In this document: in pieces, positions 30,568-62,984 of the stretch | Layout of the letters: each line of letters opens with the position of its first letter | Position numbering within the stretch: the first letter of the stretch is position 1 | Assembly: GCA_000156295.1 (NCBI GenBank) | Contig: DS999227.1 | Span: 96,361-160,360, forward strand | DNA from: a marine gamma proteobacterium HTCC2148 | GTDB taxonomy: Bacteria > Pseudomonadota > Gammaproteobacteria > Pseudomonadales > Halieaceae | DNA: 64,000 bases | Direction: 5' to 3' | The notes under the pieces: model-generated | Seen by the model: only the letters and a program-made list of their open reading frames with translations | Database searches by the model: none | What the model was told of the DNA's origin: nothing | Translations under genes and position numbers: made by a program

Positions 30568-30594
30568 TGGTCGGGACGGCAGGATTTGAACTGC
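30568..30594 (-). repeat. 3' end of tRNA-Pro: probable left attachment site of the island
   Basis: The minus strand reads GCAGTTCAAATCCTGC (T arm) then CGTCCCG, A and CCA, which is the 3' end of a tRNA-Pro. One G is missing from the usual GGTTCAAATCC, and no D arm or anticodon arm follows, so this is a fragment, not a gene. A tRNA 3' end left beside the old terminator is the classical scar of integration into a tRNA gene. Confidence 0.7.
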
Positions 30595-34952: not shown

Positions 34953-37900
34953 TGTTCACTTCCTCTGTGATAGTTAGCCTTCCGTATGCCATCGGTTCAG
35001 CCTTAATATCTGATCGAATCAAAGACGCATCGAGCTCAGATAACCTTCTCTCGTAGTCTGCGATGGCATTTGCCTTTTGTGCAGTCCTCATCCTTTGGAT
35101 ATTTGAATTAGTCACCCGGGATAGCTTCTCGTCAAGTACCGCTATACGAGCATTGTGACTCTTGTTGAGACTCTCCCTCCGGAACATTACTACGCTTTCA
35201 TTTTTCCCCCGATGACTCTCTACCGCTTGTGTCCAATAGGAATGATGCGAACCTTCTAATGCGTCGATGACTTCTGCATCAAGCGGCACCAAATTCTCGC
35301 TTCGCGTTGGACGCGCATATTCCAGAATACCGGGAAATGACTCCGCGACCTTTTCATCAGAGCAAACAGTTTTCAGAAGCACATCGCCATTTACTCCGCT
35401 GTAATCCCACTCATAGATTGCAAACGGATACTCTCCTGGCGGCAAGGCACTACTGCTAGCTGAAAGCTCTACGAAGGGCTGCTCTTCTTTCTTGGAAGTG
35501 GCAGAGGCCGCTTGTTTTGCTAGTGGATGCACTGGATTTATAAACATCAGCGACGGATCATCCGACGCAGCTGCACTATCGAAAGTTAAAGAAAGATGCG
35601 GTTCAGCACCTTTCAACCAATCAGCCCATGCTTTGTAGACTGGCGACTTTTTGATCGACAGATTATGGAAGTCTTTTAGCAGTAACTCTCGCTTATCCTG
35701 CGACAAACGAAGCGTCTTAATAGACTTTTCACCGAGAAGATGTTCCTGATCCTCTCCAAACAGACCAGCCAAATATCGAGTGATCAGATTTTCTATGGCC
35801 GAAATGCTGAGCCAGTAACTGCTAGCCCCCTCGATGTCTCGCTCTAGTTGCTCAGCGGGCAACCGAATACCGAACAATTCAGCCTGCCTGTCCTCAAGAG
35901 CTTGCTGCTCTTGAACATCTCTTATCTCATTGTCAGCCAGTTGCTGTAGTCGATCGGCCTGCTCTGATTTAGATAGAGTCACATCTTCCGCCACAGAGCG
36001 AATTTCCTTGGAAATATTCCCGAGAATCTCCTCGCTCGCTCCAACTGATCTATTGAATATACCGATTCGCATTAGGCATCTGTCGTATATCTCAGCGTCT
36101 ACTGTCCCAGGCGTTATCAGGTTATAGATGACGACTTTTTCACTTTTTTGGCCATTTCGATCTATTCGACCTATGCGCTGTTCGATCTTCATCGGATTCC
36201 AGGGAAGGTCGTAATTGACCATGGCATCGCAGAATTGATAATCAAGACCTTCGCAACCGACCTCAGAGAATAGCAGTACGTCGAGACTATCTGAATCATT
36301 GCTATCCAGCTTGAACCTGTTCCTCAGCAAGACCCTCTCTGAGTCTGGTACTCCGCCGTGAACTAGACCAATTTCGTACCCATCTTGCGTAAGCCTCTCA
36401 CTCAAGTAACTTAATGTATGTCGAAACGTGCTGAAGACCATGAGCCTCCGATTAGGAAGCGCCTGCTTTTCCTGAATTATTTTCTTCAAACGGTCGTATT
36501 TTGGATCGTCATCTCCTAAAGCTCCAGCCAGCTCTTTCACCGCGGTGATCTTCTTTACTATCTGATCAGAATCCTCCAGCATCGGCAGCCCTTCTCCAGG
36601 CTGATCCTCAAAACCATCAAATAACTCAGTATCGCGTCTCGAGAGAATGTCACCGATCATAGGGGCCAACCCAAAGATGCAGCTAGCGGCCTGTCGCCGA
36701 ATCGTGGTCATCATGAAGTTAATACTCGTGCCAGGATTGAGGCGAGATAGAATTTCTGCCTGCGCTTCGAGCAGCTCATCATGAAGAGCAGACTGAGCTT
36801 TTGTAAAAGGTACACTTTCGGTTCTGGGTTCTCTTACAGTGAACTCGCCAATATCTCTCCTTCTCGTTCTGTTGATCAGCCCAGAGAAACTGTGAAAACC
36901 CTCGAGCTGCTGAATCGCTGCTACTCGCTGCTGCGGACTCAATCTTCCAGATGCCAATAGCCCCTCGAGGTCTACAAACTCTGGATTGTCTTTAAGGATT
37001 TTTGATCCCCACTCAGTTGATGCTGCCTCCTGCATCGCCTCCCAAGCTTGTGCTTCCCAGCCTTCAGACGCTGACCTAGCAAATTCTACTGCTCGGTTGA
37101 TAGACGGATTTGGACCAGACATGTGATTGAAGCTCTCCTCATCAATCACCACATCCGGACGTAGCATATTCAACAGAACGTACAGGTCTTTGCTTCCGAG
37201 CTGGACCGGTGTCGCAGTAAGAAATACAACAGCTTCCGCGTTGTCGCAAAAAAACCTTACCGCCTCATGCGTCTGAGTATTAGGATTCTTGGCATGATGG
37301 GCCTCATCCACGATTACTAAGTCGAACTTAGGAGGGGGGTCTAGATCCAGCAGACCCTTTTGGCTTTTACTAGAGCGCGAATTAGAATCTTGGTCACCAT
37401 GGATCAGTGACTCGTCCAACAAAGAGTAAGGAATTATGGTTTTTTCATGCTGATCGGGCCATTCGCCTTCAAGATCACACTCCTGAACGCAGAACTTTAG
37501 AGTCTTACCGTCCAGCTGGGTGAACCTCTCATCAAAGCGGCGCATCTCGTTAAGCCACTTTTTCTCTGTTATCAGAGGTCGAGGACAAATGATGAGTACT
37601 GACTTGATCTCCCGGCGCGCTTGTAGCTCCCGAAGAATCAACCCGGCCTCGATAGTCTTTCCAACCCCTACACCATCAGCGATAAGCAGCCTTGGCCTAT
37701 CGGAGCGGATAAACTTCATAACAGGACGAAACTGGTACGGAATAAAGTCCACTCTCGCGGCATTTAGCGAATAAAGCGTTGAGAGGCTGGGATGTTGAAT
37801 TTGCCTCGCGGAAAGCTGAGCATTGAACTGATCAAATGAAACTGGAACGAGCCCAGGAGCATCCGACCCATGAGCCGCTAGCTGCGATGCATAAAAGGCC

Positions 37901-38535
37901 TTCGATTCGCCATCGATGAATACACGATAGCGGTCCTCCTCTTTTCTAGGCTCAACTCCAATCACTGGACCAAACCGTTGGGGATCTGATGACAAGTGAA
38001 CGAGATCCCCAACCTTGTAAGCTGTAGATTCTTCAGGCTCTGGAGCTACTATAGGCTGATCCACAGGCTCTGGTTGCGGCTGTCGAGTAGATGGCTTCGT
38101 GAGGATTGCGTCTCGGCTATTCCGGGCCTTCTGGATGACTTCATCGTCCCCTTCGAACATAGACAAAAACCTAACCAGAGTATCCAGATCTCGATAAATG
38201 TCCTCCGCTGGATATGCCTCCACTCCAGCATGGGCCCATCGATTTCGGATCATTAGGACTTCCTTGAGGTAATGCCTCGCATCCTGGCGAAGGCCAGCCT
38301 TGAAGCCTATGTCGTACCAATTTCTATCTAGAATTCTTCCTAATGCGGCAAGATCCAGGCCCGACAGCTTATCTATATTGAGAGTTTCAATATGTCGCCG
38401 CTGGGAATCGCTGACCTTATACAGCACACATTCCTTCCACCAAGCCTCACCACCTACCCGTGGCAACCAATCTTCCAAGAACGACAAAATCACCTTGGTC
38501 ACATCAAGCTGAATTTCCGCCATCTTTGCCTGCAT
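34936..38535 (-). CDS. SNF2-family helicase with N-terminal Swt1-like HEPN domain
   Basis: About 1199 residues. Residues 1-150 (numbered from the upstream GTG at 38553) look like a Swt1-type HEPN domain with the Rx4H motif in MIRNRWAHAG, which in active HEPN domains cleaves RNA. A SNF2 helicase follows: VGVGKTIEAGLIL (Walker A), VDEAHHAKNPNTQ (motif II), STFRHTLSYLSERL and QRIGRIDRNGQK (motif VI), then a long helical C-terminal region. I prefer the ATG at 38535 because GGAG is six bases upstream. It is paired with the sacsin-type ATPase. Defence function is inferred from architecture and location. Confidence 0.85.
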   Translation of the reverse strand: MQAKMAEIQLDVTKVILSFLEDWLPRVGGEAWWKECVLYKVSDSQRRHIETLNIDKLSGLDLAALGRILDRNWYDIGFKAGLRQDARHYLKEVLMIRNRWAHAGVEAYPAEDIYRDLDTLVRFLSMFEGDDEVIQKARNSRDAILTKPSTRQPQPEPVDQPIVAPEPEESTAYKVGDLVHLSSDPQRFGPVIGVEPRKEEDRYRVFIDGESKAFYASQLAAHGSDAPGLVPVSFDQFNAQLSARQIQHPSLSTLYSLNAARVDFIPYQFRPVMKFIRSDRPRLLIADGVGVGKTIEAGLILRELQARREIKSVLIICPRPLITEKKWLNEMRRFDERFTQLDGKTLKFCVQECDLEGEWPDQHEKTIIPYSLLDESLIHGDQDSNSRSSKSQKGLLDLDPPPKFDLVIVDEAHHAKNPNTQTHEAVRFFCDNAEAVVFLTATPVQLGSKDLYVLLNMLRPDVVIDEESFNHMSGPNPSINRAVEFARSASEGWEAQAWEAMQEAASTEWGSKILKDNPEFVDLEGLLASGRLSPQQRVAAIQQLEGFHSFSGLINRTRRRDIGEFTVREPRTESVPFTKAQSALHDELLEAQAEILSRLNPGTSINFMMTTIRRQAASCIFGLAPMIGDILSRRDTELFDGFEDQPGEGLPMLEDSDQIVKKITAVKELAGALGDDDPKYDRLKKIIQEKQALPNRRLMVFSTFRHTLSYLSERLTQDGYEIGLVHGGVPDSERVLLRNRFKLDSNDSDSLDVLLFSEVGCEGLDYQFCDAMVNYDLPWNPMKIEQRIGRIDRNGQKSEKVVIYNLITPGTVDAEIYDRCLMRIGIFNRSVGASEEILGNISKEIRSVAEDVTLSKSEQADRLQQLADNEIRDVQEQQALEDRQAELFGIRLPAEQLERDIEGASSYWLSISAIENLITRYLAGLFGEDQEHLLGEKSIKTLRLSQDKRELLLKDFHNLSIKKSPVYKAWADWLKGAEPHLSLTFDSAAASDDPSLMFINPVHPLAKQAASATSKKEEQPFVELSASSSALPPGEYPFAIYEWDYSGVNGDVLLKTVCSDEKVAESFPGILEYARPTRSENLVPLDAEVIDALEGSHHSYWTQAVESHRGKNESVVMFRRESLNKSHNARIAVLDEKLSRVTNSNIQRMRTAQKANAIADYERRLSELDASLIRSDIKAEPMAYGRLTITEEVNNDRVS

Positions 38536-39005
38536 CTCATTCTCCGCGATCACTTAGAAAACCATTTGTTAAATACTAACATCCACCCAACGGCTGGAAA
38601 TTGCCGACAGCGACAATTCCATGACCCTCGCCGCCAGTATCTTCAGTTTCCACCAAATGTAAATCTAAGATGTTGATTTTGATCGTCATATCGACAAAAA
38701 GCTCTGGACTGACCCACAAAATCATTACCTCACAGCAACGGTCAGATACCCCACAAATGTGAATCACCGGTCTTTCCCGGCCGTCAACCGCTCACCATGA
38801 ATCCCGATGGCTTATAGTGCTGCACGCCGATTGGCTTTCTGGCTGGAACCTACCAGCCGCAATCACAGCAAACTTCACCACCTTCATCAGAAGCATTCTC
38901 ACAGAATGCTAGCGCCCCTCAACACCCAATTCAGGGCCAACCAAGGACGTGGCACGGCAGCGCAGGTTATTCGCCCCACCTACGCTGGGGTAGTTCGTTT
39001 TTCGA
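38536..39005. other. Intergenic stretch before the helicase gene
   Basis: No convincing gene or sigma-54 site. It should hold the promoter of the helicase-ATPase pair, but I cannot define one. Near 38,974-38,990 a short hairpin (CCCCA / TGGGG) lies just past the DUF2779 stop and may help end that transcript. Confidence 0.45.
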
Positions 39006-40823: not shown

Positions 40824-42092
40824 TTATGCAACCTCAATGGGCGCGATCTCATCTAGGTGTGGCAGCGAGGCCGTTGACAGACCCTGGAGTTCGCCACAGA
40901 TGCCTACTACATTGACGGTAATTCTCTCCAACTGCCCTTCACGCTTCTTCCAGAGCCGCTGCATGGCGGCCTTTTCACGCTCCAGGTCATCTCGCATCGC
41001 AGCGTAGGCGTCCAGTACCGCCCTCACCTTCTGGGCGAACTGCGCGGAACAGACGTAGTCGTAAAGCGCTTCCATCTTTTCATTCTTACCCGATGAAGCT
41101 GTTCGCTGACGGAAAGCCTCAATCAGGATGGCCCGCAAGGCATCTGCCAGGGGCTTTGCAAACTCGGGCCTGACCAGCCAGATTCCGTCAATCTGGGTAA
41201 AAGGTTCGTCGACATTGGCCGGGTAGGCAGTGCTTACCAGCACCCCGATCTCACCACCCACCGACTGCTGATCATCTTTGAGCTTAGAAACCCACTTGTT
41301 CGACCAGTTCTCGGCTCGCTTTGTCTCCCAGACGATCTTTCCAGCGCTGGCACCGCTTCTTAGGTTCACAGTCTGGATTACATCTGCTCCTCGAACACCC
41401 TTGGAGACAGCATCGACCTGGTCGATTGGAAAAGCCTGGGACAAGATCTCCTCGAGTTCCAATTCAAGCACCTCACCCTGAAGCTGCTGCGAGCCCTGCT
41501 CCAGCTTTCGCTTCAGATCTTCATTTGCACTATGAGCGTCATCGATCTTCTTTCGGAGCTCCGCCTCCCGGAGTTGGAACTCATTGCCCAGTTCAGCACG
41601 CAAGGCGCTCTGCTGCTCCTCGAGCTGACGTTGAAGCGTCAACTCAAGGTCGCGTTTCTCCTGATCGAGAACCTGCTTGGCTTTGCGAAGCGCCAATTCT
41701 TCCTTACGGAAGTCCTCCAGCTTTTCGTCTTTCTCACCAAGCTGTTGCTTCAGATCTGAGAGCTCTTCGGCCGCCTCTTCCCTGGCCTGATCTGCCGCTC
41801 GTGCCTTTTCTTTTGTCAGCTTTTTATGTGCCTTCTCGCGCTCTGCCTGAGCATCTTCCAGTTTGTCTGTGAGGTCACCCAACTGCTCCTCAAACCGGCC
41901 TGATAGTTGCCGTTCAGCAGTACGGACCGCACGTGCCTCCAGAGCCTCTCGCTCTTCAGCTAGCTTCTGGTCGTACTCCTCTTCGTAGCGCTCAATCAGG
42001 TGGTGCGAAATGCCCTGCACAAGAGGGAACTCGTGCGAGCAATCAGGGCAGGTTACGGGGTCGTTGGGGTCTATTACGATGCGTTGGCTCAT
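40824..42092 (-). CDS. DUF2130 protein (zinc motif, coiled coil, nuclease-like domain)
   Basis: A 422-residue protein. It opens with a zinc-binding CPDCSHEF motif, continues as a coiled coil from about residue 35 to 210, and ends with the DUF2130 domain, in which GKIVWETKRAENWSNKWVSKLKDDQ has the Glu-x-Lys of a PD-(D/E)XK nuclease fold. DUF2130 proteins are often found in defence islands. GGAG lies eight bases before the ATG, and a sigma-54 promoter lies 39 bases upstream of the start. It heads a set of three genes ending with DUF2779. Confidence 0.85.
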   Translation of the reverse strand: MSQRIVIDPNDPVTCPDCSHEFPLVQGISHHLIERYEEEYDQKLAEEREALEARAVRTAERQLSGRFEEQLGDLTDKLEDAQAEREKAHKKLTKEKARAADQAREEAAEELSDLKQQLGEKDEKLEDFRKEELALRKAKQVLDQEKRDLELTLQRQLEEQQSALRAELGNEFQLREAELRKKIDDAHSANEDLKRKLEQGSQQLQGEVLELELEEILSQAFPIDQVDAVSKGVRGADVIQTVNLRSGASAGKIVWETKRAENWSNKWVSKLKDDQQSVGGEIGVLVSTAYPANVDEPFTQIDGIWLVRPEFAKPLADALRAILIEAFRQRTASSGKNEKMEALYDYVCSAQFAQKVRAVLDAYAAMRDDLEREKAAMQRLWKKREGQLERITVNVVGICGELQGLSTASLPHLDEIAPIEVA

Positions 42093-42130
42093 TGCTTATT
42101 CTCCAATAAAGATGTCTTATACACCCCTAT

Positions 42131-42147
42131 AGCAGAATACGTGCCAA
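42131..42147 (-). promoter_or_regulatory. Sigma-54 (-24/-12) promoter before the DUF2130 gene
   Basis: The minus strand reads TTGGCACGTATTCTGCT: GG and GC are exactly 10 bases apart, and only one base of the consensus TGGCACG-N4-TTGCW differs. Transcription would start near 42,120, leaving a 28-base leader with a good ribosome site. The 120 bases upstream are AT-rich, which would suit activator-induced bending. Confidence 0.8.
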
Positions 42148-42271: not shown

Positions 42272-42889
42272 CTATTCCTCATCCAGAGCGTTAAGGTAAT
42301 CGGCCAGAACATCGCCATGGCACGCCGCGGGACTGCAGAAACAGCCCAGTCGCTTACCCTTAAGTTTGATCAACTCCGACTTCTCTTTGTTGGGAAAAAG
42401 ATCGAAATCAAAGTCATACTTGTACTTTCTGATAACTTCCTCCCGGTCATCCATCTCGCCATCATCATTGCTCTCAAACATTGAATAGGGGTTTCCCCAA
42501 TAAGAGCCTCTGCCAATATATTCGTAGTCTGGCGTGCTCTTCAGGCCTTCGTACTGGGTCTCCCGCTTGATGTTTATTACCCGCGTGATCACGATCTTCA
42601 GAAGGCGAGTGGGTATATCCATCTCCTTTAAGAGAGCTGACTCCTCATTAAACTCCTCGCCATCATCGAAGACTATGGCATGGGTAAGATCTGCACCCTG
42701 AATGGCCAGCAACGGTTCAGCGTTTACACTCCCCTCACTCTCGATGGCATATTGCTCAACGTAGCCATTGTGGTCATTCATATAGAGCAGGCAGACATCT
42801 TCCAAGCGGCTAATGACTTTACCGACCTTGCGCTGGAACTTGCTCTGTGAGAGCAGTTCCTTCGGATATAAAACCAGTACTCTACTCAT
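42272..42889 (-). CDS. DUF4326-domain protein
   Basis: A 205-residue protein. The C-terminal half is a DUF4326 domain with VINIKRETQYEG, YIGRGSYWGNPYS and KRLGCFCSPAACHGDVLADYLN. The last segment has the cysteine pair and the CH motif that probably form the active or metal site. Computational studies place DUF4326 near the DUF488 and rhodanese-phosphatase families, with proposed nucleotide or nucleic-acid chemistry; I recall this without certainty. Its ATG overlaps the stop of the DUF488 gene, so the two are translated together. Confidence 0.82.
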   Translation of the reverse strand: MSRVLVLYPKELLSQSKFQRKVGKVISRLEDVCLLYMNDHNGYVEQYAIESEGSVNAEPLLAIQGADLTHAIVFDDGEEFNEESALLKEMDIPTRLLKIVITRVINIKRETQYEGLKSTPDYEYIGRGSYWGNPYSMFESNDDGEMDDREEVIRKYKYDFDFDLFPNKEKSELIKLKGKRLGCFCSPAACHGDVLADYLNALDEE

Positions 42890-43329
42890 CAGACGAGGTG
42901 TTCTACCTGCAACTCGGCGTCCCAGTGGTCATTCAGATATTCGACTACCAAGCGACGGTGACAAAAATGGGGTTCGTGTTCGCTACACAGCAAGCAACCG
43001 TGATCCATCAGCTCTTTGGATACCGTTCGCTCTATATTTCGCTGTACCATCAAATCCAGATACTGGTCTTCATAGGCCTGCCAGGGAATTTCCTTTTTTT
43101 TATATGCATTGAGGATATCCTTGGTAGGTGCCAGGTCCTCCATGTGGTAGTAATCGGCGTCGCAGAGCTCCTTCAAGAAAAACCGAAGATCATCGCGCTT
43201 AGCGAAGCCGGCTAACTGAGAGATATTATTCAGGCGCACATCCAGCAACTGCCGAACGCCACTCTCGCGAAGCAGCGAAAAAAATCTATCCGCCTTTTTC
43301 TGGGTGAAGCCTATCGTGTAGGTTTTCAT
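42889..43329 (-). CDS. DUF488 protein
   Basis: A 146-residue DUF488 protein. It starts MKTYTIGFTQKKADRFF and ends with HGCLLCSEHEPHFCHRRLVVEYLN, the family's cysteine and CHR motif. The spacing of that motif resembles the CH-containing segment of the neighbouring DUF4326 protein. The family is linked computationally with rhodanese and phosphatase folds, but the substrate is not known. It overlaps both neighbours (43,329 and 42,889), so the trio is a unit. Confidence 0.88.
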   Translation of the reverse strand: MKTYTIGFTQKKADRFFSLLRESGVRQLLDVRLNNISQLAGFAKRDDLRFFLKELCDADYYHMEDLAPTKDILNAYKKKEIPWQAYEDQYLDLMVQRNIERTVSKELMDHGCLLCSEHEPHFCHRRLVVEYLNDHWDAELQVEHLV

Positions 43330-44087
43330 TATTGGCGCCTCAGCAGGTAGCCGGATTGATCGATGACTCCAGCTACAAGTTTATAGTGTTTATTCTGCCC
43401 CCCAAATCTCGGGCTCAAACTGACACATAGCCAATAAGAATCGCCGTTGTTCAGAGGCTTAATGATCTCATCTGCTCCTTCCGCGGGGAATTGTCTACCA
43501 AGAATTCTCCGAATTATAGGGTCTGTCACAGAGAGACCGGAATATTCCTGTCCATTGTATAGAAAGGACGCCATAAGCTTTTTCTTATAACGTCCTTCAT
43601 ACTCGTTGTAGTCGTTCGAGAGATGAAACTGTAAGTTCTGCGGCTGAATAACCTTGAGTGAATCAGTAATCATGCCGTGCTGCTCGTACTGCAAAGAAAC
43701 TTCCGCTGTCGATGTGCCATGCTGTTGATCCAACCAAACATCTTGAGGCGACTCCAGCAGCCTTGCACAAATCGAGGCCTCAAAGTGCCCATGTGAAACC
43801 CATGGGACAGATGTGTCAATCAGCCAATTCTCTGGCTGTCCTGGTTCGGGCGAGTGGTCCCTGAGTCCTATGGTCACAATATCCATCAAATAAATATCCT
43901 GGCCATCAATCTGGTAGAAAGCCTCGGACACAGAGCCATGGTGAGCCGAATTATCTGATACGGGGCGTATCCACGTGTGAGATAGATTCCACTGATTCCC
44001 GCCTGCCTTCGTGACTTCTTTTCCAGCTATGCAACGCCCACCTGGTTTATAGGAATTTGCCAGCACTACTATTGTCTTCTTTTTCAT
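43329..44087 (-). CDS. Dual OB-like domain protein of the DUF488 trio
   Basis: A 252-residue protein opening with IVVLANSYKPGGRCIAGKEV, a signature I associate with the dual-OB (DuOB) domain described near DUF488 proteins. Alternating beta strands dominate, and the sequence ends HYKLVAGVIDQSGYLLRRQ. OB folds usually bind nucleic acid or nucleotides, so it may present the substrate to the DUF488 and DUF4326 proteins. It is coupled to DUF488 by an overlapping start and stop and lies 103 bases after the PLD-like gene. Confidence 0.65.
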   Translation of the reverse strand: MKKKTIVVLANSYKPGGRCIAGKEVTKAGGNQWNLSHTWIRPVSDNSAHHGSVSEAFYQIDGQDIYLMDIVTIGLRDHSPEPGQPENWLIDTSVPWVSHGHFEASICARLLESPQDVWLDQQHGTSTAEVSLQYEQHGMITDSLKVIQPQNLQFHLSNDYNEYEGRYKKKLMASFLYNGQEYSGLSVTDPIIRRILGRQFPAEGADEIIKPLNNGDSYWLCVSLSPRFGGQNKHYKLVAGVIDQSGYLLRRQ

Positions 44088-50336: not shown

Positions 50337-51497
50337 CTAGAGTTCTCCTGAAAATGCTTTTTGACTAATGGAATGGAACACCGCTTCCGCTCCTCTTTCA
50401 GATGAGGCTTGTCGCTCCTGGCTATCTCTAGTTTTCCAATAAATTTTTGAGAATCTCTTTTGATCTTCAAGGTTGGGGACAGGAATCTCAATCTCGTATA
50501 GCTCTTTGGTTCTTATGCCTTTTACGGTACTGCCCGATGAACGTTTTTCGATCAATCCCTGTACAAATCTATTCAAAAGAGCATGCATTAGGAATTCTTG
50601 AGTTACTTTTCCTAAAGACCTAAGTGAAATCAGCCGCTGACCAACTACCACTTTTTCGTAGTTGCCTAAAAGTGCAACGTTCCCCAGGGGTGCTTCAGTT
50701 GTAAACAAGACGTCATTCTTTTCTGGTAAGCCCCGACTCATCCACTCCAAATAGTTTTCCTCTGGTATGAATTCTCTTGGCTCCTCTGAGATATAACCCT
50801 TTTTGACGTTCTTAGCTGTAATTAAGGGCACACCAGACTCAGACTTCTCCGGTGTCTTCCCCCGATAATCAATATAGGATGTCAATTCTCCAATTTTTCT
50901 TCTGCTTGCCTTTTCGTAACCCTTTGTTGTGAACATTTCACCAAACATATCCAGAAAAACAGCGCGCAGGAATTCGTCGGCGAGCTGGATGGCTTGCTGG
51001 CGCTTGCGGCGGAGGTTGTCGGCCTTATCGAGGATGGCGGCTATGCGTTTTTGTTCTTCCAAAGGTGGCACAGAGATTTCTAATGACTCAAAGTTGCTCT
51101 TATTGATAATTGCTACAGTCGTGGAGGGTGCTAGCGCCTCCATTTTCGGTTTCAGCCGCCCTAACGCGTAGTATCCATACTTTGGAAATACCTTTGTCTC
51201 ATCGAAAATCACACTATTTATCTGCTGATTTGTTGCCAACTCTCTCCCGGCGATAGCGACCTTACCCAGTGTTCCTATGCATGAGACCATTACTGCATTT
51301 TTCGGAATCAACTTTATGGTCTCCGCCCCCTTCTGTGAAAGGGTTTGCGGCGCCTCCGTGATATATGCTGCCAGACCTAGATCGCCAGGTGTTACAAAAG
51401 GAATGTCACCACCAAAGTTATCGTCCAACTTCCTCGAGGGGGTCTTTCCAGTTGCGACCTTGGCTACGTGCTTGATCGCTCGAACTGAATGACTCAA
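50337..51497 (-). CDS. hsdS: Type I restriction-modification specificity subunit
   Basis: A 386-residue HsdS that selects the DNA target for both methylation and cleavage. Two target-recognition domains are visible: residues 1-150 (PFVTPGDLG, PPLEEQKRIAAILDKAD) and 200-386 (PLITAKNVKKGYISEEPREF, IPVPNLEDQKRF). The two conserved helical spacers separate them. It overlaps hsdM by 4 bases. The target sequence cannot be predicted from the protein. Confidence 0.93.
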   Translation of the reverse strand: MSHSVRAIKHVAKVATGKTPSRKLDDNFGGDIPFVTPGDLGLAAYITEAPQTLSQKGAETIKLIPKNAVMVSCIGTLGKVAIAGRELATNQQINSVIFDETKVFPKYGYYALGRLKPKMEALAPSTTVAIINKSNFESLEISVPPLEEQKRIAAILDKADNLRRKRQQAIQLADEFLRAVFLDMFGEMFTTKGYEKASRRKIGELTSYIDYRGKTPEKSESGVPLITAKNVKKGYISEEPREFIPEENYLEWMSRGLPEKNDVLFTTEAPLGNVALLGNYEKVVVGQRLISLRSLGKVTQEFLMHALLNRFVQGLIEKRSSGSTVKGIRTKELYEIEIPVPNLEDQKRFSKIYWKTRDSQERQASSERGAEAVFHSISQKAFSGEL

Positions 51498-56608: not shown

Positions 56609-56619
56609 GTAGCCCCTAC

Positions 56620-56636
56620 AGCAAGGGGCGTGCCAA
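56620..56636 (-). promoter_or_regulatory. Sigma-54 (-24/-12) promoter before hsdR
   Basis: The minus strand reads TTGGCACGCCCCTTGCT, a perfect match to the sigma-54 consensus TGGCACG-N4-TTGCW with 10 bases between GG and GC. It fills the 28-base gap between the regulator stop (56,637) and hsdR. Transcription would begin near 56,609. Confidence 0.85.
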
Positions 56637-58166
56637 CTATTCCTTTAGTCCTACATCTTCCATCCACTTATTGAGTGTCTGGTAGTTATTTAGCCCCAGT
56701 TTTTCGGCAGACTTCGTTTTGTTGTTGCCATTTTCTGCGAGCGCTTTTTTAATGTAGTGCTTTTTAAGATCCTTTATAAGCTCTTGAATATCGAAGGTAT
56801 TATCCAAACTTCTACCCAGCAGGTCTCCTGCCTTCGCGGGTCGTTCAAGAAGTGCCTCGCGCATTTCGCGCTCGGTTATGGTCTCGCCTCCAGACCAGAC
56901 CGATGCCCGGGTAAGGCTTGCCTGGAGCTCCCTGACATTACCGGGCCAACCATGAGACTTAATAATATTTCTTGCTTTAGCAGATAATTTTTTATGTTTG
57001 TAGCCAGGATCGAGACCCAGAGCTTCGTTGTTGATGCCTTCGAGTAGTTTGTCTGTGAGTAACATCAGGTCCCCCTCCCGCTCACGCAGGGGTGGAAGAT
57101 TGATCACACCAACAGCTACTCGATAAAAAAGGTCCTCGCGAAAATTACCCTCGACCATCTCAGCCATCAAATCGCGATTAGTTGCAGCGATCACACGCAC
57201 ATCCACCTTCCTTTCCTCGGTGTCGCCCACGCGAGCAAAGGTGCCATCATTTAATACACGCAGGAGGCGCACCTGCGTCTCCGCGGGGAGTTCACCAAAT
57301 TCATCCAAGAAAATGGTGCCACCATCAGCCACCTCAAAATAGCCGGCCTTGTCCTTTTCAGCTCCAGTAAATGCGCCTTTCTTGTGACCAAACAGCTCAC
57401 TGTCAACAAGTTCCTGGGATATGGCCCCGCAGTTTACGGACACTAGCTCAGAACCACTCTCCCCACCCCTTCGGCTGGCTTCATGTATTGCGCGCGCAAA
57501 AAGCTCCTTGCCTGTACCTGACTCGCCGAGGATTAAAACGGGTATATCACGCTCTGCAATCTTCTGTGCTTTGATGATCTGCGCCTTAAGCACTGGACTC
57601 TGCGTAATAATGTCCGTGAATGCGGGCGGAGTTGCGGTTTGCCCGGAGGCAAGGCGCCTAAGAGTGGCATCAGATTCGGCAAGAAGACTGGGAATGAAGT
57701 CAGCCGCGATATCAAAAGGCACGTCCACATCGCCAACGCCCCCTTCCGGAGACGACTGCAGCATCTGCAATTTAAAAGTCGTTTTACAAAGCAACAGCCA
57801 CACAGCATGCATCTGAGGCGTGCCAGGACTAACCAGCACCGAAATCTGCTCTTTATCAAACTCGTTCACCAGCTGACCCAGAAGGCGATTAGATGCCTGG
57901 TAGATATCCCCATAGTGAACTGGTGTTTCGAGCTTGACGGTATGCAGATCTACAAGAATGTCTGCGCCAAGCCTCTCTTTGACCTGCGCCAGCAGCCAAT
58001 CCCCATAAGGCTCTACTCTAGCTGTGGGGTAGTTATACAGTAGGTGTACCTGGGCATGCGGCCGGTCGAGCAAGGTGCTAAGAATGGGCCCCAGCTGCTC
58101 ACCAGCAGACCCGGGTGCATCTAGGTCGTTCCCCCCTACCCAACTGACAAGCACTTCTTTGGTCAT
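56637..58166 (-). CDS. RtcR-like sigma-54 activator with CARF-like sensor domain
   Basis: A 509-residue bacterial enhancer-binding protein. Residues 1-185 look like a CARF domain as in Rtc[11 protein letters not shown] at the start and [14 protein letters not shown], where CARF domains bind cyclic oligonucleotides or RNA ends. The AAA+ core has [14 protein letters not shown] (Walker A), [14 protein letters not shown] (sigma-54 contact loop) and an intact Walker B. A Fis-type helix-turn-helix ends the protein ([18 protein letters not shown]). GGAG lies nine bases before its ATG. It lies between hsdR and the ARPP-1 operon, and three sigma-54 promoters are in the island. I infer it controls them. 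Confidence 0.9.
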
Positions 58167-58379
58167 TTACCGATCTCCTTCTTCTATCAAACCGCCCCGG
58201 ACACTACATTAGCCCCGCAACAGCAGAACAAATATAACAAAAATTTTTATGATGGCGATATATTTTTTATGCCTTCCGACAATAAAAATAGACCTTCGTA
58301 GTCAAAAATCTAGGAGCTAAATATTTTTTATTTATATTTATCAGATAGTTATAAATTATTTACTGCCAGACCAGAAAAC
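58167..58379. promoter_or_regulatory. AT-rich divergent control region (candidate activator and IHF sites)
   Basis: The gap is AT-rich, especially 58,250-58,360. The 11-base unit ATATTTTTTAT occurs twice, at 58,260-58,270 and 58,321-58,331, 61 bases apart. Activators of this type bind 80-200 bases upstream of the promoter with IHF-assisted looping, so this is where enhancer sites are expected. No clear inverted repeat stands out. Confidence 0.45.
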
Positions 58380-58396
58380 TTGGCACAGCACCTGCA
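58380..58396 (+). promoter_or_regulatory. Sigma-54 (-24/-12) promoter before ARPP-1
   Basis: TTGGCACAGCACCTGCA has the GG and GC 10 bases apart, as required, with TGGCAC exact and CTGCA for TTGCW. Transcription would start near 58,407, leaving a 30-base leader with GGAG five bases before the ATG at 58,437. Confidence 0.85.
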
Positions 58397-58436
58397 ATGA
58401 GTATATCGACAACAAATTATTCGTTCTGGAGACACA

Positions 58437-59402
58437 ATGACAGCACCACTACCCAAACATCTCGTATTCGGCCAACCACGCGAATTTCGTGGCCTCGCCA
58501 TCGCGCCGATCTTTGATTTCGGCCAAGAGGCCACACTCGACTACCTGACTCTGGACGAGGCATTCGATCAGTCCGGTATTGAGATCACGGAAACTAGCGA
58601 CTCCGGCAGCGTACCGGAGCTCAAACTCGAGAATAAGGTGGATACCCCGGTCCTGCTACTGGACGGTGAAGAGCTGGTGGGGGCAAAACAGAACCGCGTG
58701 GTGAACCTCACCCTCCTGGTACCTGCACTGGCAACCACGGTCATACCGGTTTCATGCGTGGAATCAGGTCGCTGGTCTTACCGCTCAAGTAACTTCGAGC
58801 GTACCGACCGCACACACTTTGCTCGAGGCCGGGCCAAGAAAATGGCTTCCGTGAGCCGCTCCATGCGCCAGTCCGGCTCAAGGCACAGTGATCAGGGCGA
58901 AGTCTGGTCCGAGATTGACCGCAAGTTCTCCGCCATGGAGTCGGAATCGCACACTTCTGCCATGGCAGATATGTATCAAGACGCCGCGCCAACACTCGAG
59001 GAGTACGTTAGCGAGCTCAATCCAGAGCCCCACCAGGTGGGAGCCTTCTACTTCTTGCACGGCCAACTGGTCGGCATGGACCTATTCGACAAGGCCGGTA
59101 CTTACGCCCGGCTCAATAGCAAGCTCGTCAAGAGTTACGCCATTGATGCGTTGGAGGTTTCGCCTAGCGACCGCCAGCGAGCTTCCCTCTCAGAGGCGCT
59201 GCGCTTTCTAGAGGTCATCGAGGGCGGGCAATGGGAGCGCTACGAATCAGTCGGTATAGGCGAGGACCATCGTTTGTTATCGGGGCATATGGCCTCCGCC
59301 GTACTCGCTGTTGATGGGCAAACCATCCACCTATCAGGTTTTGTAACTGAGCAAGCGCCCTCGGGCTATCGCCCCGGACGCAGGCGCAGGCGGAACCTCT
59401 AA
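58437..59402 (+). CDS. ARPP-1 domain protein
   Basis: A 321-residue protein with the ARPP-1 signature: VLLLDGEELVGAKQNRVVNLTLLVPA, IPVSCVESGRWSYRS, HQVGAFYFLHGQLVGMDLF. In the naming I recall, ARPP-1 is a domain found with ADP-ribosyl-glycohydrolase and rhodanese-phosphatase genes; its reaction is not known. It is the first gene of a sigma-54-dependent operon whose other members bind or cut nucleic acid. DUF488 and DUF4326 genes sit in the same island, which matches that association. Confidence 0.8.
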   Translation: MTAPLPKHLVFGQPREFRGLAIAPIFDFGQEATLDYLTLDEAFDQSGIEITETSDSGSVPELKLENKVDTPVLLLDGEELVGAKQNRVVNLTLLVPALATTVIPVSCVESGRWSYRSSNFERTDRTHFARGRAKKMASVSRSMRQSGSRHSDQGEVWSEIDRKFSAMESESHTSAMADMYQDAAPTLEEYVSELNPEPHQVGAFYFLHGQLVGMDLFDKAGTYARLNSKLVKSYAIDALEVSPSDRQRASLSEALRFLEVIEGGQWERYESVGIGEDHRLLSGHMASAVLAVDGQTIHLSGFVTEQAPSGYRPGRRRRRNL

Positions 59403-59492
59403 CGAGGCACCGAAGTGGAACACCCGACAGGGCCGCGGCAGGGAAGCCGCACTAACTGAAATCAAGCTAAACCATTGCACCGGAGAATGAGC

Positions 59493-59798
59493 ATGAATAA
59501 GCCAAAGAAAGTTCGCCAGATCTACGCGGAACTCCAGCGTGTTTACGGTGGTGAGATTCCAACACACGAGCTGCTGGAGTGCGCGTCGCTGATAGCCGAT
59601 GCGTCTGAAGACTCCATCAGCTCTTCGCCGAAAACGGCATTTCACGGCCGTACGCCGTTTTCGGAGCTTCCGGTGAACGAAGTTATGGAGCGCTGGAGCT
59701 GGCGGATCGTCGGCCAGGAATACTCCGCCGAAGATGACTTCGGCCCACACATGTCTCAGGAGGCACTCCTGGAACACACACTTTCAATGGCTGCATAG
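59493..59798 (+). CDS. Small unknown protein of the ARPP-1 operon
   Basis: A 101-residue acidic protein. The ATG at 59493 is preferred because GGAG lies seven bases upstream. It is helical at the start (KVRQIYAELQRVYGGEIPTHELLECASLIADAS) and contains an EYSAEDDFGPHMSQEALLEHTL ending. No family is recognised. It lies between ARPP-1 and a winged-helix gene. Confidence 0.65.
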   Translation: MNKPKKVRQIYAELQRVYGGEIPTHELLECASLIADASEDSISSSPKTAFHGRTPFSELPVNEVMERWSWRIVGQEYSAEDDFGPHMSQEALLEHTLSMAA

Positions 59799-59807
59799 GG
59801 AGGAAAT

Positions 59808-60080
59808 ATGTCCAACAGTAGAACGCAATTGGTGCTGGGGGTGAAAGAGCATCTACTTACCGGCCACCCGATTACACAGCTTGAGTGCATCGTCCTATTC
59901 GGCGTACCAAGCCTAACCAAAGTGATCTCAGATATGCGCAAGGAGGGCTACGTCATCGAATCCAAGCGCGTCCCGTTCGTAGCCGCGCTGCGCAGGATCA
60001 ACGAGTCGGCGACTCTGGAACCACCTGGAAACCTGCCCATCAAGGAAGTGGCCCTGACCGAATACTGGTTGAGCCGATGA
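59808..60080 (+). CDS. Winged-helix (HTH_39-like) protein
   Basis: A 90-residue protein with an N-terminal winged helix of the type seen in phage and island genes: HPITQLECIVLFGVPSLTKVISDMRKEGYVIES. It could repress or fine-tune the operon or help bind DNA ends. A GGAGG ribosome site precedes the ATG. Its stop overlaps the start of the HNH gene (ATGA), implying coupled translation. Confidence 0.72.
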   Translation: MSNSRTQLVLGVKEHLLTGHPITQLECIVLFGVPSLTKVISDMRKEGYVIESKRVPFVAALRRINESATLEPPGNLPIKEVALTEYWLSR

Positions 60081-60274
60081 TGCGCCTCTTTAACAAAAGA
60101 CAAAGACGAATCCTGGCTTGGGTTGCAGGCGGTCAATGCACTATTTGCCAAAGACCACTCAACAGTAATTTCCACGCTGATCACGTACTCGCTCACTCCA
60201 AAGGTGGAGCAACAACAACAGACAATGGGCAGGCGCTCTGCGCTCCCTGTAACCTCAAGAAGGGGGCAAAATGA
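60077..60274 (+). CDS. Small HNH nuclease
   Basis: A 65-residue protein, nearly all HNH fold: CTICQRPL and LCAPCNLKK bind zinc, and FHADHVLAHSKGG and DNGQ supply the catalytic His and Asn. No recognition domain is attached, so the neighbouring helicase or winged-helix protein probably directs it. It overlaps the winged-helix gene by 4 bases and the helicase gene by 4 bases. Confidence 0.85.
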   Translation: MMRLFNKRQRRILAWVAGGQCTICQRPLNSNFHADHVLAHSKGGATTTDNGQALCAPCNLKKGAK

Positions 60275-61932
60275 AGATCAAACTTCGTAATTGGCAGCGT
60301 GAAGCGCACGACCAGGCCATCGAATGGCTGGTGAAGCGCGCTGAAGATCGGCACTTCCTGATCAATGCCGCTCCCGGCGCGGGTAAGACTCTCGCGTCCT
60401 GCGCTATCGCTGATACGCTCATACAGTCCGGCGAGATCGAGCGGGTAATCGTTATCGCACCTCGTTCCGAGGTTGTTAACCAATGGGCCGATGATTTCCG
60501 CTTTGTAACGGGACGCCATATGGCGAAAGTCACAGCTGCCGATGGCGACATCACCGGGCTTTCTCTCGATGTATGCGCCACGTGGTCGGCCATACAAGGT
60601 CTCCTGCCTGAGTTGCAGGCGGTGTGTCGTGCACAAAAGACGCTAGTGATTTGTGATGAGCATCATCATGCAGCCGTAGAGGCAGCATGGGGAAAGGGTG
60701 CTGATGGCGCATTCGCCAATGGTCGTTTTGTGCTAGTACTTACTGGCACCCCCATCCGTTCGGATGGGGCTGAATCAGTCTGGTTGGCGTATGACGATGC
60801 CGGTGCCATCGACCACCCGGAAGATGGCACCTATACCCTCACCTATGGTGAAGCAGTTGACCTGGGGTATTGCCGACCTGTGACCTTCCATCGGCACGAG
60901 GGCAAATTCACGGTGGACCTGGAGGGTCATCAGGTCAAGGTATCGGGACACGACAAGGCAGAGCTTCCGCCTGAACTGAAACGCGTTCACGGTCTTCAAA
61001 AGGCCCTAGACTTCTACCGCTTGGCCAAGACGCCACAGTTTGAGAAAGACAAGATCACACCACTACTGGATGGCTACCAGTCCACGATGATCGACTGGGG
61101 CAGCGAGAAGCTGACCGAGCTACGGCACCGCATGCCAGAGGCCGGTGGCCTCATCATTGCGCCGAATATCGAGATGGCCGAGTACATGGTGGACCTGATC
61201 GAACGCATCGAAGGTGAAAAGCCGATACTGGTGCACAGCCAGATGCCCAACCCCAACGCGAAGATCCGTGCGTTCCGGAATACTGACAAGCGCTGGCTGG
61301 TATCCGTGGCCATGGTATCGGAGGGCGTGGATATCAAGCGACTGCGTGTGCTTCTCTACCTCCCGAACGCCCTGACCGAGCTGGCGTTCCGCCAGGCGGT
61401 AGGTCGTGTTGTAAGGACTATGGGCGCCCATGACGACACCCGAGCGTATGTCGTTATGCCCTCCTTCCAGCTTTTCGAGGACTTTGCCCGGCGCGTGGAG
61501 GAAGAAATGTCACCCGCTGCCCGCAAGGGCGATGGTTCACCAAAGCATAAGGTCTGCCGTGAGTGTGGCCACGAATGCGATTTGGGAGCTGACTCCTGCC
61601 CTGTGTGCGGCCATGAATTTCCCAAAGCACCTGAGCGACTGAAACCTTGCGGTGACTGCGGTGCCCTCAACCCGATGGCCGCCAAAAGCTGTCACACGTG
61701 TGGCTCATCTTTTGAACAGGACTTTAACCTCACACTGGATGAAGCCTTACGCACCGGGGCGATTGTAAGAGGCATCGATATTGAGGAGGAAGAGGTACAG
61801 AGCGCCGAGGAGATCGCCCCAGTAGTCCGCGGTCGGATTCTTAGAAGCGGTGACCAGCGATTGGTGAAGATCATCCAAACCTTGCCGGATGAGAGCTGGG
61901 CGAGGCTTCGCTCGATTCTCGAGGCGAACTAG
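60271..61932 (+). CDS. SF2 DEAD/DEAH-type helicase with zinc ribbons
   Basis: A 553-residue SF2 helicase. INAAPGAGKTLASCAIA is Walker A, VICDEHHHAA motif II, LVLTGTPIRSD motif III, VSEGVDIKRL and RQAVGRVVRTMG motifs V and VI. Near residues 430-490 two zinc ribbons follow (VCRECGHEC / CPVCGHEF, and PCGDCGALN / SCHTCGSSF). It overlaps the HNH gene by 4 bases and is the last gene of the sigma-54 operon. The HNH-helicase pair looks like a nucleic-acid-processing module. Confidence 0.88.
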   Translation: MKIKLRNWQREAHDQAIEWLVKRAEDRHFLINAAPGAGKTLASCAIADTLIQSGEIERVIVIAPRSEVVNQWADDFRFVTGRHMAKVTAADGDITGLSLDVCATWSAIQGLLPELQAVCRAQKTLVICDEHHHAAVEAAWGKGADGAFANGRFVLVLTGTPIRSDGAESVWLAYDDAGAIDHPEDGTYTLTYGEAVDLGYCRPVTFHRHEGKFTVDLEGHQVKVSGHDKAELPPELKRVHGLQKALDFYRLAKTPQFEKDKITPLLDGYQSTMIDWGSEKLTELRHRMPEAGGLIIAPNIEMAEYMVDLIERIEGEKPILVHSQMPNPNAKIRAFRNTDKRWLVSVAMVSEGVDIKRLRVLLYLPNALTELAFRQAVGRVVRTMGAHDDTRAYVVMPSFQLFEDFARRVEEEMSPAARKGDGSPKHKVCRECGHECDLGADSCPVCGHEFPKAPERLKPCGDCGALNPMAAKSCHTCGSSFEQDFNLTLDEALRTGAIVRGIDIEEEEVQSAEEIAPVVRGRILRSGDQRLVKIIQTLPDESWARLRSILEAN

Positions 61933-62338
61933 AAGAAGACCAATCTAGGCGTGGGAGCGAGCCTGGCAATACCGCACCCTTCGGCCTAACACACTGCCCT
62001 ACAAAAATTTTCTCTAGAGCACCATTGCGCTCTAACTTAGTTAGAGCCGCGCTCAGTCTAATAAAAAATTCTAATAAAGCGGCTCAGCAACACTACTCCC
62101 TATGTTACATCCCATGCCACCCGGGTGTTACATCCCATATGTTTTAGGTGTTACATCCCATAGTCTTTGGGTGTTACATCCCAAAGTTTCGGTGTGTTAC
62201 ATCCCACTGGACTGAAGCGCTTCAACTAATACCATCACCTAACCTTGTTAGTCAGAAAACTCACTTTCCCACTTGTAAACATGCGGCCGAAAAAACTCGT
62301 ATGTTATTAGAAACAACACTGACCAAGGAGAGATATTT
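61933..62338. other. Intergenic stretch with iterons
   Basis: No gene is apparent. It holds the five iterons at 62,103-62,206 and, before them, AT-rich sequence with a short direct repeat of CTAATAAA-like units. It may contain an origin or a control site for the following genes. Confidence 0.5.
62103..62206 (+). repeat. Five direct repeats TGTTACATCCCA at an exact 23-bp period
   Basis: The 12-base unit TGTTACATCCCA occurs without mismatch at 62,103, 62,126, 62,149, 62,172 and 62,195, each 23 bases from the last. The bases between differ. Such iterons bind replication initiators or partition/regulatory proteins on the same face of the helix. No obvious initiator gene is next to them. Confidence 0.9.
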
Positions 62339-62695: not shown

Positions 62696-62928
62696 GAATG
62701 CGTTTTTCGGCACTGCATTTTTGGAATGCGTTTTTCGGCAACAAAAGCCTATGAAATGCGTTTTTCGTCATTCTAAAATCTCAAGAAAACACTATAAATA
62801 TAGTACTCAAGATAATTTCTTGAAAAAAAAGGATTTGCTGCGTTTTCTAGTTGCAAAGGGAAGTCTTTGATGCCCAGAATATCTACCAAGAGAGACACCA
62901 CAGGTACACCTTCAATGCGTTTTTTCGA
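62696..62928 (+). repeat. Repeat family AATGCGTTTTTCG upstream of the excisionase
   Basis: GAATGCGTTTTTCGGCA occurs at 62,696 and 62,724, a variant AAATGCGTTTTTCGTCA at 62,754, and a fourth, looser copy near 62,913 (CAATGCGTTTTTTCGAAA). They lie just before the excisionase and integrase genes and may be arm-type integrase sites or excisionase/repressor sites. Confidence 0.75.
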
Positions 62929-62984
62929 AAAAAACTCGATAGAAAAAATGGCAAACAAGCGCGTTAGTTCGAAGAGGGGCAAGA

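What the first reader, a model, noticed from the sequence alone, without database searches (positions are those of the whole stretch)
58437..61932. An inducible ARPP-1, winged-helix, HNH and helicase operon
Five genes in one direction, with ATGA overlaps at the last two junctions, follow the sigma-54 site. The HNH enzyme has no recognition domain and the helicase carries two zinc ribbons, so together they may make a targeted nuclease. ARPP-1 could produce or remove the signal or modification. The combination is not one I recognise as a named system.
Basis: partly seen in the sequence, partly recalled or inferred. Interest (0 to 1): 0.8.

Follow-up and report, generated by a model that had tools for sequence, protein, structure and literature searches.

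The report
CARF-sigma54 switch for restriction and HNH-helicase operons
On a 34-kilobase mobile island in a bacterium, one sensor-regulator gene sits between two predicted sigma-54 promoters that would turn on a restriction enzyme on one side and an uncharacterised nuclease-helicase gene set on the other, which looks like an infection- or damage-triggered DNA-cutting response shared by distant bacteria.

Summary
The five-gene operon is real at 58437-61932: ARPP-1, a small ORF, a winged-helix protein, a 65-aa HNH and an SF2 helicase with two zinc ribbons. A near-consensus sigma-54 site (58380) precedes it, and a divergent CARF-AAA+-HTH activator of the RtcR_PspF2 type lies opposite. ARPP-1 is not core (2 of 42 related loci). 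The core is [ORF2]-wHTH-HNH-helicase: wHTH in 42 of 42 helicase loci from alpha-, beta- and gammaproteobacteria, HNH in 38, HNH and helicase one reading frame in 16. Homologues are rare (3 of 244 genomes of the order). No PADLOC or NCBIfam model fits the helicase over its length; its core is kin to a phage helicase family (phrog_16). The unexpected part is regulatory: a perfect sigma-54 site also sits in the 28-nt gap between the RtcR-like gene and hsdR, and recurs directly after the RtcR-like stop in 7 of 10 RtcR-HsdR pairs examined. A third precedes a DUF2130 gene: 3 of the genome's 11 strict sites fall on this 34-kb island. Best reading: a ligand-sensing CARF activator switches on type I restriction and an HNH-helicase effector together. 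Anti-phage function is inferred, not shown; RadD-like repair is the main rival.

The parts
30568..30591 (.). left attachment repeat of the island: 24 bp identical to the 3' end of tRNA-Pro(ggg) at window coordinate 64730-64753, just beyond the window
40824..42092 (-). DUF2130 gene, predicted third sigma-54 target
   Evidence: PF09903 200 bits; site 42131-42147 (-), 28.2 of 28.5
42131..42147 (-). sigma-54 -24/-12 site TTGGCACGTATTCTGCT upstream of the DUF2130 gene
50337..51497 (-). hsdS
   Evidence: PF01420 Methylase_S 146 bits, two stretches; PADLOC Specificity_I 222 bits
51494..53059 (-). hsdM
   Evidence: PADLOC MTase_I 603 bits; N6_Mtase 206 bits
53111..56608 (-). hsdR
   Evidence: PADLOC REase_I 892 bits
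56620..56636 (-). perfect sigma-54 -24/-12 site TTGGCACGCCCCTTGCT between the RtcR-like stop codon and hsdR
   Evidence: 28.5 of 28.5; same place in L005, L006, L023, L082, L083, L084
56637..58166 (-). RtcR-like activator: CARF + sigma-54-interacting AAA+ + Fis-type HTH
   Evidence: PADLOC RtcR_PspF2 641 bits over 4-507; Sigma54_activat 221 bits
58380..58396 (+). sigma-54 -24/-12 site of the operon TTGGCACAGCACCTGCA
58437..59402 (+). ARPP-1 (PF20208), accessory
   Evidence: 335 bits; Q85, C107 and the CVE-GRW residues invariant in 7 of 7 aligned
59493..59798 (+). ORF2, small, predicted helical; no family
   Evidence: tblastn relatives in 20 of 42 loci; model pLDDT 70, pTM 0.37
59808..60080 (+). 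winged-helix protein (HTH_39)
   Evidence: tblastn match in 42 of 42 loci
60077..60274 (+). minimal HNH endonuclease, 65 aa
   Evidence: H-x-D-H, N and both CxxC found in 38 of 42 loci
60271..61932 (+). SF2 (ResIII-type) helicase with two C-terminal zinc ribbons
   Evidence: phrog_16 147 bits
63179..64000 (+). island integrase (490 aa; reaches window coordinate 64651 beyond the window's end)

Best explanation
A ligand-gated, two-armed DNA-restriction island. The RtcR-like protein senses a nucleotide-type signal with its CARF domain (ligand unknown; by analogy with RtcR, RNA fragments with particular ends). Its AAA+ hexamer then opens sigma-54 polymerase at two promoters flanking its own gene. 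One drives hsdR (and probably hsdM and hsdS) of a type I restriction system. The other drives ARPP-1, ORF2, wHTH, HNH and helicase. The HNH and helicase work as one machine: the helicase translocates on or remodels DNA and the HNH cuts it, with the wHTH and ORF2 supplying DNA binding or gating. A third promoter may add the DUF2130 protein. SHOWN from sequence: gene order, HNH-helicase fusion in relatives, conserved catalytic motifs, conserved sigma-54-like sites on both sides, island repeat at a tRNA gene. INFERRED: the ligand, that this activator uses these promoters, that HNH cuts DNA, and that the target is phage or other invading DNA.
For: wHTH-HNH-helicase order conserved and HNH fused to helicase in 16 of 42 loci. 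Walker A, DEHHH and motif VI residues and eight Cys invariant in 36 of 36 aligned. The best solved-structure matches to the helicase profile are the restriction enzymes LlaGI and LlaBIII, then RadD, all partial. Sigma-54 sites: 58380; 56620 perfect, with the same position after the RtcR-like stop in L005, L006, L023, L082, L083 (26.5 or more) and L084 (26.0). The matrix finds only 34 sites of 26.4 or more in about 785 kb, and none of 3,000 shuffled gaps reached 26.4. In 6 of these 7 gaps an in-frame hsdR ATGGA lies 13-14 nt after the -12 C (L084 by reading). Genome-wide, 3 of 11 strict sites lie on the 34-kb island, binomial p about 8e-5. Modification genes beside 13 of 42 loci against 0.67 genes expected from the class rate. 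Island with other predicted defence genes. Patchy spread with classes mixed on the tree.
Against: No activity, ligand or expression data. 28 of 43 loci have neither an RtcR-like gene nor a sigma-54 site in the held DNA, so the switch is not general for the module. Two alphaproteobacterial RtcR loci (L031, L037) have no site on either side by this matrix. Four loci have a site but no RtcR-like gene in the held stretch (L008, L012, L013, L014), and L021 keeps only a CARF part. Four loci lack HNH (L012, L014, L021, L033). All three core proteins have phage kin in PHROGs (wHTH phrog_4973 37 bits, HNH phrog_2118 50 bits, helicase phrog_16 147 bits), so a replication origin of the set is open. The helicase is well conserved (66% mean column identity). 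In the SAR11 loci I saw no defence gene by eye. The matrix weights, the cut-off 26.4 and the strict pattern were chosen by me after the first site was known, and the strict pattern after all three were, so the p values are indicative only. The modification-gene rate comes from the window's own class, while many loci are alphaproteobacterial. The hsdR-side site overlaps an inverted repeat in the window, L005, L006 and L023, so part of its conservation may have another cause.
Confidence: 0.55

Rival explanations
1. Inducible DNA repair: the helicase is a RadD-like SF2 enzyme and, with HNH, processes broken or cross-linked host DNA; the CARF activator senses damage (for example RNA ends made during SOS or prophage induction).
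For: Helicase profile finds RadD third among solved structures (6jde, E 7e-11); the RadD NCBIfam model matches in three stretches, 54 bits; a rare, well conserved protein. Titles and abstract starts seen tie RtcR to damaged tRNA (PMC7790460) and to the SOS response (PMC9879122).
Against: 54 bits against a RadD cut-off of 720; patchy spread (3 of 244; 1 of 398); modification genes beside 13 of 42 loci; island location.
Confidence: 0.23
2. The module and the type I system are independent cargo of a defence island; the RtcR-like gene regulates only one of them and the other neighbourhood is coincidence.
For: RtcR-like with HsdRMS but without the module in L082, L083, L084, L086; RtcR-like with the module but without HsdRM in the held DNA of L018, L019.
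Against: Sigma-54 sites on both sides in window, L005, L006 and L023; helicase, RtcR-like and Hsd genes recur together in L005, L006, L023, L031, L037.
Confidence: 0.15
3. A replication or maintenance function of the mobile island, derived from phage replication genes, rather than defence.
For: Iteron-like repeats and an integrase lie right beside the operon (62100-62229, 63179 on). Helicase, HNH and wHTH all match PHROGs families of DNA-metabolism type or unknown function (phrog_16 147 bits, phrog_2118 50 bits, phrog_4973 37 bits). This overlooked fact raised this rival from 0.05 to 0.07, at the cost of the repair rival.
Against: The integrase and ORF62339 queries found nothing in L005 or L006, which carry the same operon; no relative confirmed in IMG/VR by the six peptide patterns; 14 phage and 68 plasmid records match, none above 60% identity.
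Confidence: 0.07

Closest known systems
RtcR (activator of rtcAB RNA repair) and RtcR-like CARF-NtrC-HTH proteins tied to restriction systems
   Same: CARF + AAA+ + HTH order; PMC4012209 (passages read) already reports RtcR-like proteins not linked to Rtc and often beside R-M systems
   Different: 327.9 bits against the RtcR equivalog cut-off 650; no RtcB in this genome; sigma-54 sites at both borders and the HNH-helicase operon are not in the passages read
CoCoNuT loci with RtcR homologues and ancillary HsdRMS (PMC11090510, passages read)
   Same: RtcR-like gene with type I restriction genes and predicted shared induction
   Different: no McrB-type GTPase or CnuH hit among the 20 proteins scanned here (a HEPN_Swt1 domain does occur, in the DrmD-like helicase at 34936-38553); here the partner is wHTH-HNH-helicase, transcribed divergently
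RadD / YejH helicase
   Same: SF2 ResIII core with C-terminal zinc binding (RadD's zinc finger recalled, not tested)
   Different: 54 bits against 720; two ribbons; HNH partner or fusion
phage DNA helicase family phrog_16
   Same: helicase core and beyond, residues 1-491, 147 bits
   Different: matches 269-682 of a 986-position profile; named phage records hold only relatives under 60% identity
ARG-ARPP-rhodanese-phosphatase systems (PMC9503650, passages read)
   Same: ARPP protein with nuclease and helicase neighbours; a mSLOG-DUF4326 gene lies on the same island at 42272-42889. Elsewhere ARPP-1 sits with a WYL regulator and an ADP-ribosylglycohydrolase (L072), as published
   Different: no ADP-ribosylglycohydrolase in this genome; ARPP-1 follows a sigma-54 site here
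IscB / Septu PtuB-type HNH nucleases
   Same: HNH fold (IscB 27 bits, PtuB 18.8 bits)
   Different: HNH core only; far below the IscB cut-off of 175

Membership tests
RtcR (RNA-repair activator) | scores above the NCBIfam equivalog cut-off | tested here: not met
   327.9 against 650 bits
RtcR (RNA-repair activator) | controls rtcA/rtcB in the same genome | tested here: not met
   no PF01139 (RtcB) match in G000
RtcR_PspF2 CARF-AAA-HTH | whole-length match with CARF, AAA+ and HTH | tested here: met
   641 bits, residues 4-507 on profile 2-480 of 481
RtcR_PspF2 CARF-AAA-HTH | activates sigma-54 promoters | tested here: inconclusive
   Sigma54_activat 221 bits, sites on both sides; no expression data
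Type I restriction-modification | HsdR, HsdM and HsdS genes together | tested here: met
   HsdR 892 and HsdM 603 bits; HsdS 222 bits
RadD | scores above the RadD equivalog cut-off | tested here: not met
   54.4 against 720 bits
ARG-ARPP systems | ARPP protein with conserved Cys and Gln | tested here: met
   PF20208 335 bits; C107, Q85 invariant in 7 of 7 aligned
ARG-ARPP systems | ADP-ribosylglycohydrolase in the locus | tested here: not met
   no PF03747 match in G000
CoCoNuT | McrB-like GTPase with coiled-coil nuclease tandem | tested here: inconclusive
   no such match among the 20 operon, flank and island proteins given to Pfam and PADLOC; smaller island ORFs not scanned, and I do not know whether PADLOC 2.0 holds CoCoNuT models
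Any named anti-phage system (PADLOC 2.0) for the HNH-helicase module | whole-length helicase match | tested here: not met
   best is PbeA, 47 bits, residues 2-88
Anti-phage defence system | protects cells from phage | not testable with these tools
   needs a plaque or plasmid-exclusion assay

The most novel reading that the evidence does not exclude
A signal-gated restriction system in which one CARF activator keeps a type I restriction enzyme and an unnamed HNH-helicase effector silent until infection or damage releases a nucleotide signal, and then fires both from two back-to-back sigma-54 promoters, with hsdR read from a practically leaderless transcript. If hsdM and hsdS have no promoter of their own, restriction would start before the chromosome is modified, which would make the type I system itself an abortive or self-damaging effector.
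Probability: 0.35. Interest if true: 0.82.

Novelty: new variant of a known kind. Interest (0 to 1): 0.62.

Why it matters
To my knowledge (recalled) type I restriction is usually taken to be always on. A conserved sigma-54 site directly behind a CARF-type sensor gene and in front of hsdR would make restriction a switched response, and would give a ready reporter for finding the ligand of this CARF family. The wHTH-HNH-helicase set is a rare, widely scattered module without a name in the defence libraries searched, small enough (about 2.4 kb with ORF2) to test in a laboratory strain.

Tried and rejected
ARPP-1 as a core component: rejected, 2 of 42 loci. ARPP-1 as part of an ARG pathway in this cell: no ARG in the genome. 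The activator as true RtcR: no RtcB, below cut-off. A recent phage origin of the operon: the IMG/VR scan confirmed none and phage and plasmid records hold only helicases under 60% identity; a remote phage origin stays open. Structure: the ORF2 model is weak (pLDDT 70, pTM 0.37) and the fused HNH-helicase model of L018 too (pLDDT 62, pTM 0.39), so no fold search was run. An upstream activator-binding palindrome in 58167-58436: AT-rich weak inverted repeats and no clear shared element in three loci. A clean empty insertion site: among seven genus relatives, the same left flank lies about 5 kb from a copy of the repeat in two (G106, G241), about 30 kb in G871, about 109 kb in G158, and on another contig in the other three, as listed; so only weakly supportive. 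Literature searches for the module or for sigma-54 control of type I restriction listed nothing whose title or abstract start describes either. Of only 12 of 38 papers were listed. Beyond listings I saw passages of PMC4012209, PMC9503650 and PMC11090510. The library is open-access only, and the 2020 CARF classification paper is not held.
Full report
What is there. Opposite, at 56637-58166, lies an activator with CARF, sigma-54-interacting AAA+ and Fis-type HTH parts; its best PADLOC profile is RtcR_PspF2 with 641 bits over nearly its whole length. Behind it on the same strand come hsdR, hsdM and hsdS.

The core module. A scan of 84,980 species genomes with the helicase gave 42 confirmed loci (a lower bound, since only six peptide patterns were scanned). 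tblastn with the window's proteins (E up to 0.01) found the wHTH in 42 of 42, always upstream of the helicase; ORF2 in 20 of 42; ARPP-1 in 2 of 42, both close relatives. A motif search found the HNH in 38 of 42; in 16 of 42 HNH and helicase are one open frame, in 22 separate, and in 4 (L012, L014, L021, L033) no HNH was seen. In 36 of 42 loci a small ORF upstream of wHTH was aligned with ORF2 (three near copies and three loci without a fitting ORF were left out), but identities to the window outside the closest two are 7-31%, so ORF2 homology in the distant loci is not established. Among the window and 35 loci aligned, key Walker A (G36, G38, K39, T40), DEHHH and motif VI residues and eight zinc-ribbon cysteines do not vary. 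A quick tree of those 36 mixes alpha-, beta- and gammaproteobacteria, and needs at least six changes of HNH state and six of RtcR presence (several long branches, 11 of 33 inner branches under 80% support).

Kin. NCBIfam and PADLOC give only partial, low helicase matches (RadD 54 bits, PbeA 47 bits). PHROGs gives phrog_16, DNA helicase, 147 bits over residues 1-491, phrog_2118 for the HNH (50 bits) and phrog_4973 for the wHTH (37 bits). In solved structures the helicase profile finds parts of LlaGI, LlaBIII and RadD first.

Rarity. The helicase was found in 3 of 244 genomes of the order, all in one genus, one of them a C-terminal remnant near the contig end beside a transposase gene, and in 1 of 398 of the phylum sample, the window's own (at most three candidates per listed genome were scored there). 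The IMG/VR scan confirmed none. Plasmids held 68 matching records and phages 14, all under 60% identity.

The switch. I scored 17-mers with a hand-weighted sigma-54 matrix (maximum 28.5; recalled consensus). The site at 58380 scores 27.2, with none of 300 single-base shuffles reaching it. Over the window and 47 loci (about 785 kb) only 34 sites score 26.4 or more. Thirteen of 43 loci (window plus 42) have such a site ahead of the module: window, L005-L008, L012-L015, L018, L019, L021, L023; L025, with 25.7, was not counted. An RtcR-like gene, whole or partial, is next to the module in 11 of 43; 9 of these have the site, against 4 of 32 others (Fisher p 6e-5; 6 of 8 against 4 of 30, p 0.002, after dropping L005, L006, L019, L039, L041 as near copies). 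L012 and L013 start within about 250 nt of a contig end, so an RtcR-like gene may be cut off there. L031 and L037 have the gene and no site.

A second promoter. The scan also found a perfect site, TTGGCACGCCCCTTGCT, at 56620-56636 on the minus strand. It lies directly after the RtcR-like stop codon and 11 nt before the first ATG of the hsdR frame. I then examined the ten RtcR-HsdR pairs in hand: window, L005, L006, L023, L031, L037 and, from an independent draw of RtcR_PspF2 genes, L082, L083, L084 and L086. In that draw 11 of 274 genomes passed E 1e-120; five of these matched only the AAA+ and HTH part (or little more) and were not followed; the six at 1e-130 or better include the window. Seven of ten pairs have a site within 17 nt of the stop (26.0-28.5). 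L086 has one of 25.5 132 nt away; L031 and L037 have none. In L085, the last of the six (its match spans one stop codon), no Hsd genes follow but a site of 26.5 precedes the next gene. Of 3,000 shuffled gaps none reached 26.4. In window, L005, L006, L023 and L083 an hsdR ATG is 13-14 nt after the -12 C; in L083 the longest hsdR frame begins before the site, so the later ATG is assumed. In L084 an earlier ATG intervenes and the equivalent ATGGA is at 13 by reading; in L082 the first ATG is at 35. So in six of seven the transcript would be nearly leaderless. In the window, L005, L006 and L023 the site overlaps an inverted repeat (e.g. GCCCC-GGGGC); no T run follows, and I do not know its role.

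Genome control. The strict pattern YTGGCACNNNNNYTGCW occurs 11 times in 4.33 Mb and its reversed control 0 times. Three of the 11 are on this island: 58380, 56620 and one 39 nt upstream of a DUF2130 gene (42131). By length 0.09 would be expected; binomial p about 8e-5. The pattern was written after these three sites had been seen, so this p is indicative. The RtcR-like protein is the only sigma-54 activator that I recognised among the island proteins scanned.

The island. A 24-bp exact repeat at 30568-30591 matches the 3' end of tRNA-Pro(ggg) next to the integrase, at window coordinate 64730-64753. The 34.2-kb stretch holds a sacsin-type ATPase (TmtA-like), a DrmD-like SNF2 helicase, DUF2779, DUF2130, mSLOG-DUF4326, DuOB, an AAA_15 ATPase and two PADLOC candidate proteins (PDC-M61A/B). 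Relatives give only weak support for an empty site (see Tried and rejected). L005 matches the coordinates of genome G180, which is in the window's genus, so the host is probably a Seongchinamella species (inference).

Defence context elsewhere. Seven of 42 loci have Hsd genes by tblastn (L005, L006, L014, L021, L023, L031, L037) and six a C5-cytosine methylase (L024, L025, L026, L030, L034, L040, all six confirmed by Pfam). L034 also has Vsr and L040 GmrSD. In 94 class genomes I count 197 N6_Mtase and 61 DNA_methylase matches, pieces included. At that rate (2.66 Mb assumed as mean size) 0.67 genes are expected in the 645 kb of loci, against 13 loci observed. Relatedness between loci makes the formal p too small. 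SAR11 and several other loci show no such neighbour.

How it most likely works. See Best explanation. Shown: gene order, fusion, motifs, promoter-like sites and their conserved places. From established knowledge (recalled): NtrC-type AAA+ proteins activate sigma-54 promoters; CARF domains bind nucleotide ligands; HNH domains cut nucleic acid. Inferred: ligand, target and defence role. The 2014 CARF paper already ties RtcR-like proteins to restriction systems (PMC4012209, passages), and the CoCoNuT paper proposes RtcR-driven defence superoperons containing HsdRMS (PMC11090510, passages). What I did not find in the searches named under Tried and rejected is the HNH-helicase module, or sigma-54 sites at both borders of the activator gene.

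Verdict. A real, conserved and unnamed module under a probably two-sided CARF/sigma-54 switch; ARPP-1 is a passenger. Interest 0.62.

Noticed in passing
window 62100-62229 and 62696-62929: Five direct repeats at exact 23-nt spacing (core TGTTACATCCCA), and three copies of AATGCGTTTTTCG plus a fourth with one extra T, between the operon and the integrase; iteron-like arrays, function unknown.
   Followed up: no
window 42272-42889 and 43329-44087: mSLOG-DUF4326 and DuOB proteins on the same island; [quoted passage not shown]
   Followed up: partly
window 40824-42147: DUF2130 gene with a 28.2 of 28.5 sigma-54 site 39 nt upstream, a likely third member of the regulon.
   Followed up: partly
L085 6531-8468: RtcR_PspF2 gene without Hsd genes nearby, with a sigma-54 site before the next small gene and a phosphatase/vWA-type cluster behind it (domain names by eye).
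   Followed up: no
L021 5840-6697: A protein that matches only the CARF part of the activator, upstream of a module with a sigma-54 site and no AAA+ part found nearby.
   Followed up: no
L080 9387-9644: C-terminal remnant of the helicase at 79% identity near a contig end beside a transposase gene (PF01527) in a genus relative: the module probably lost there.
   Followed up: partly
window 56612-56629 and L023 5321-5341: Inverted repeats overlapping the hsdR-side sigma-54 site with arms that differ between loci but still pair (GCCCC/GGGGC, ACGCTC/GAGCGT).
   Followed up: no
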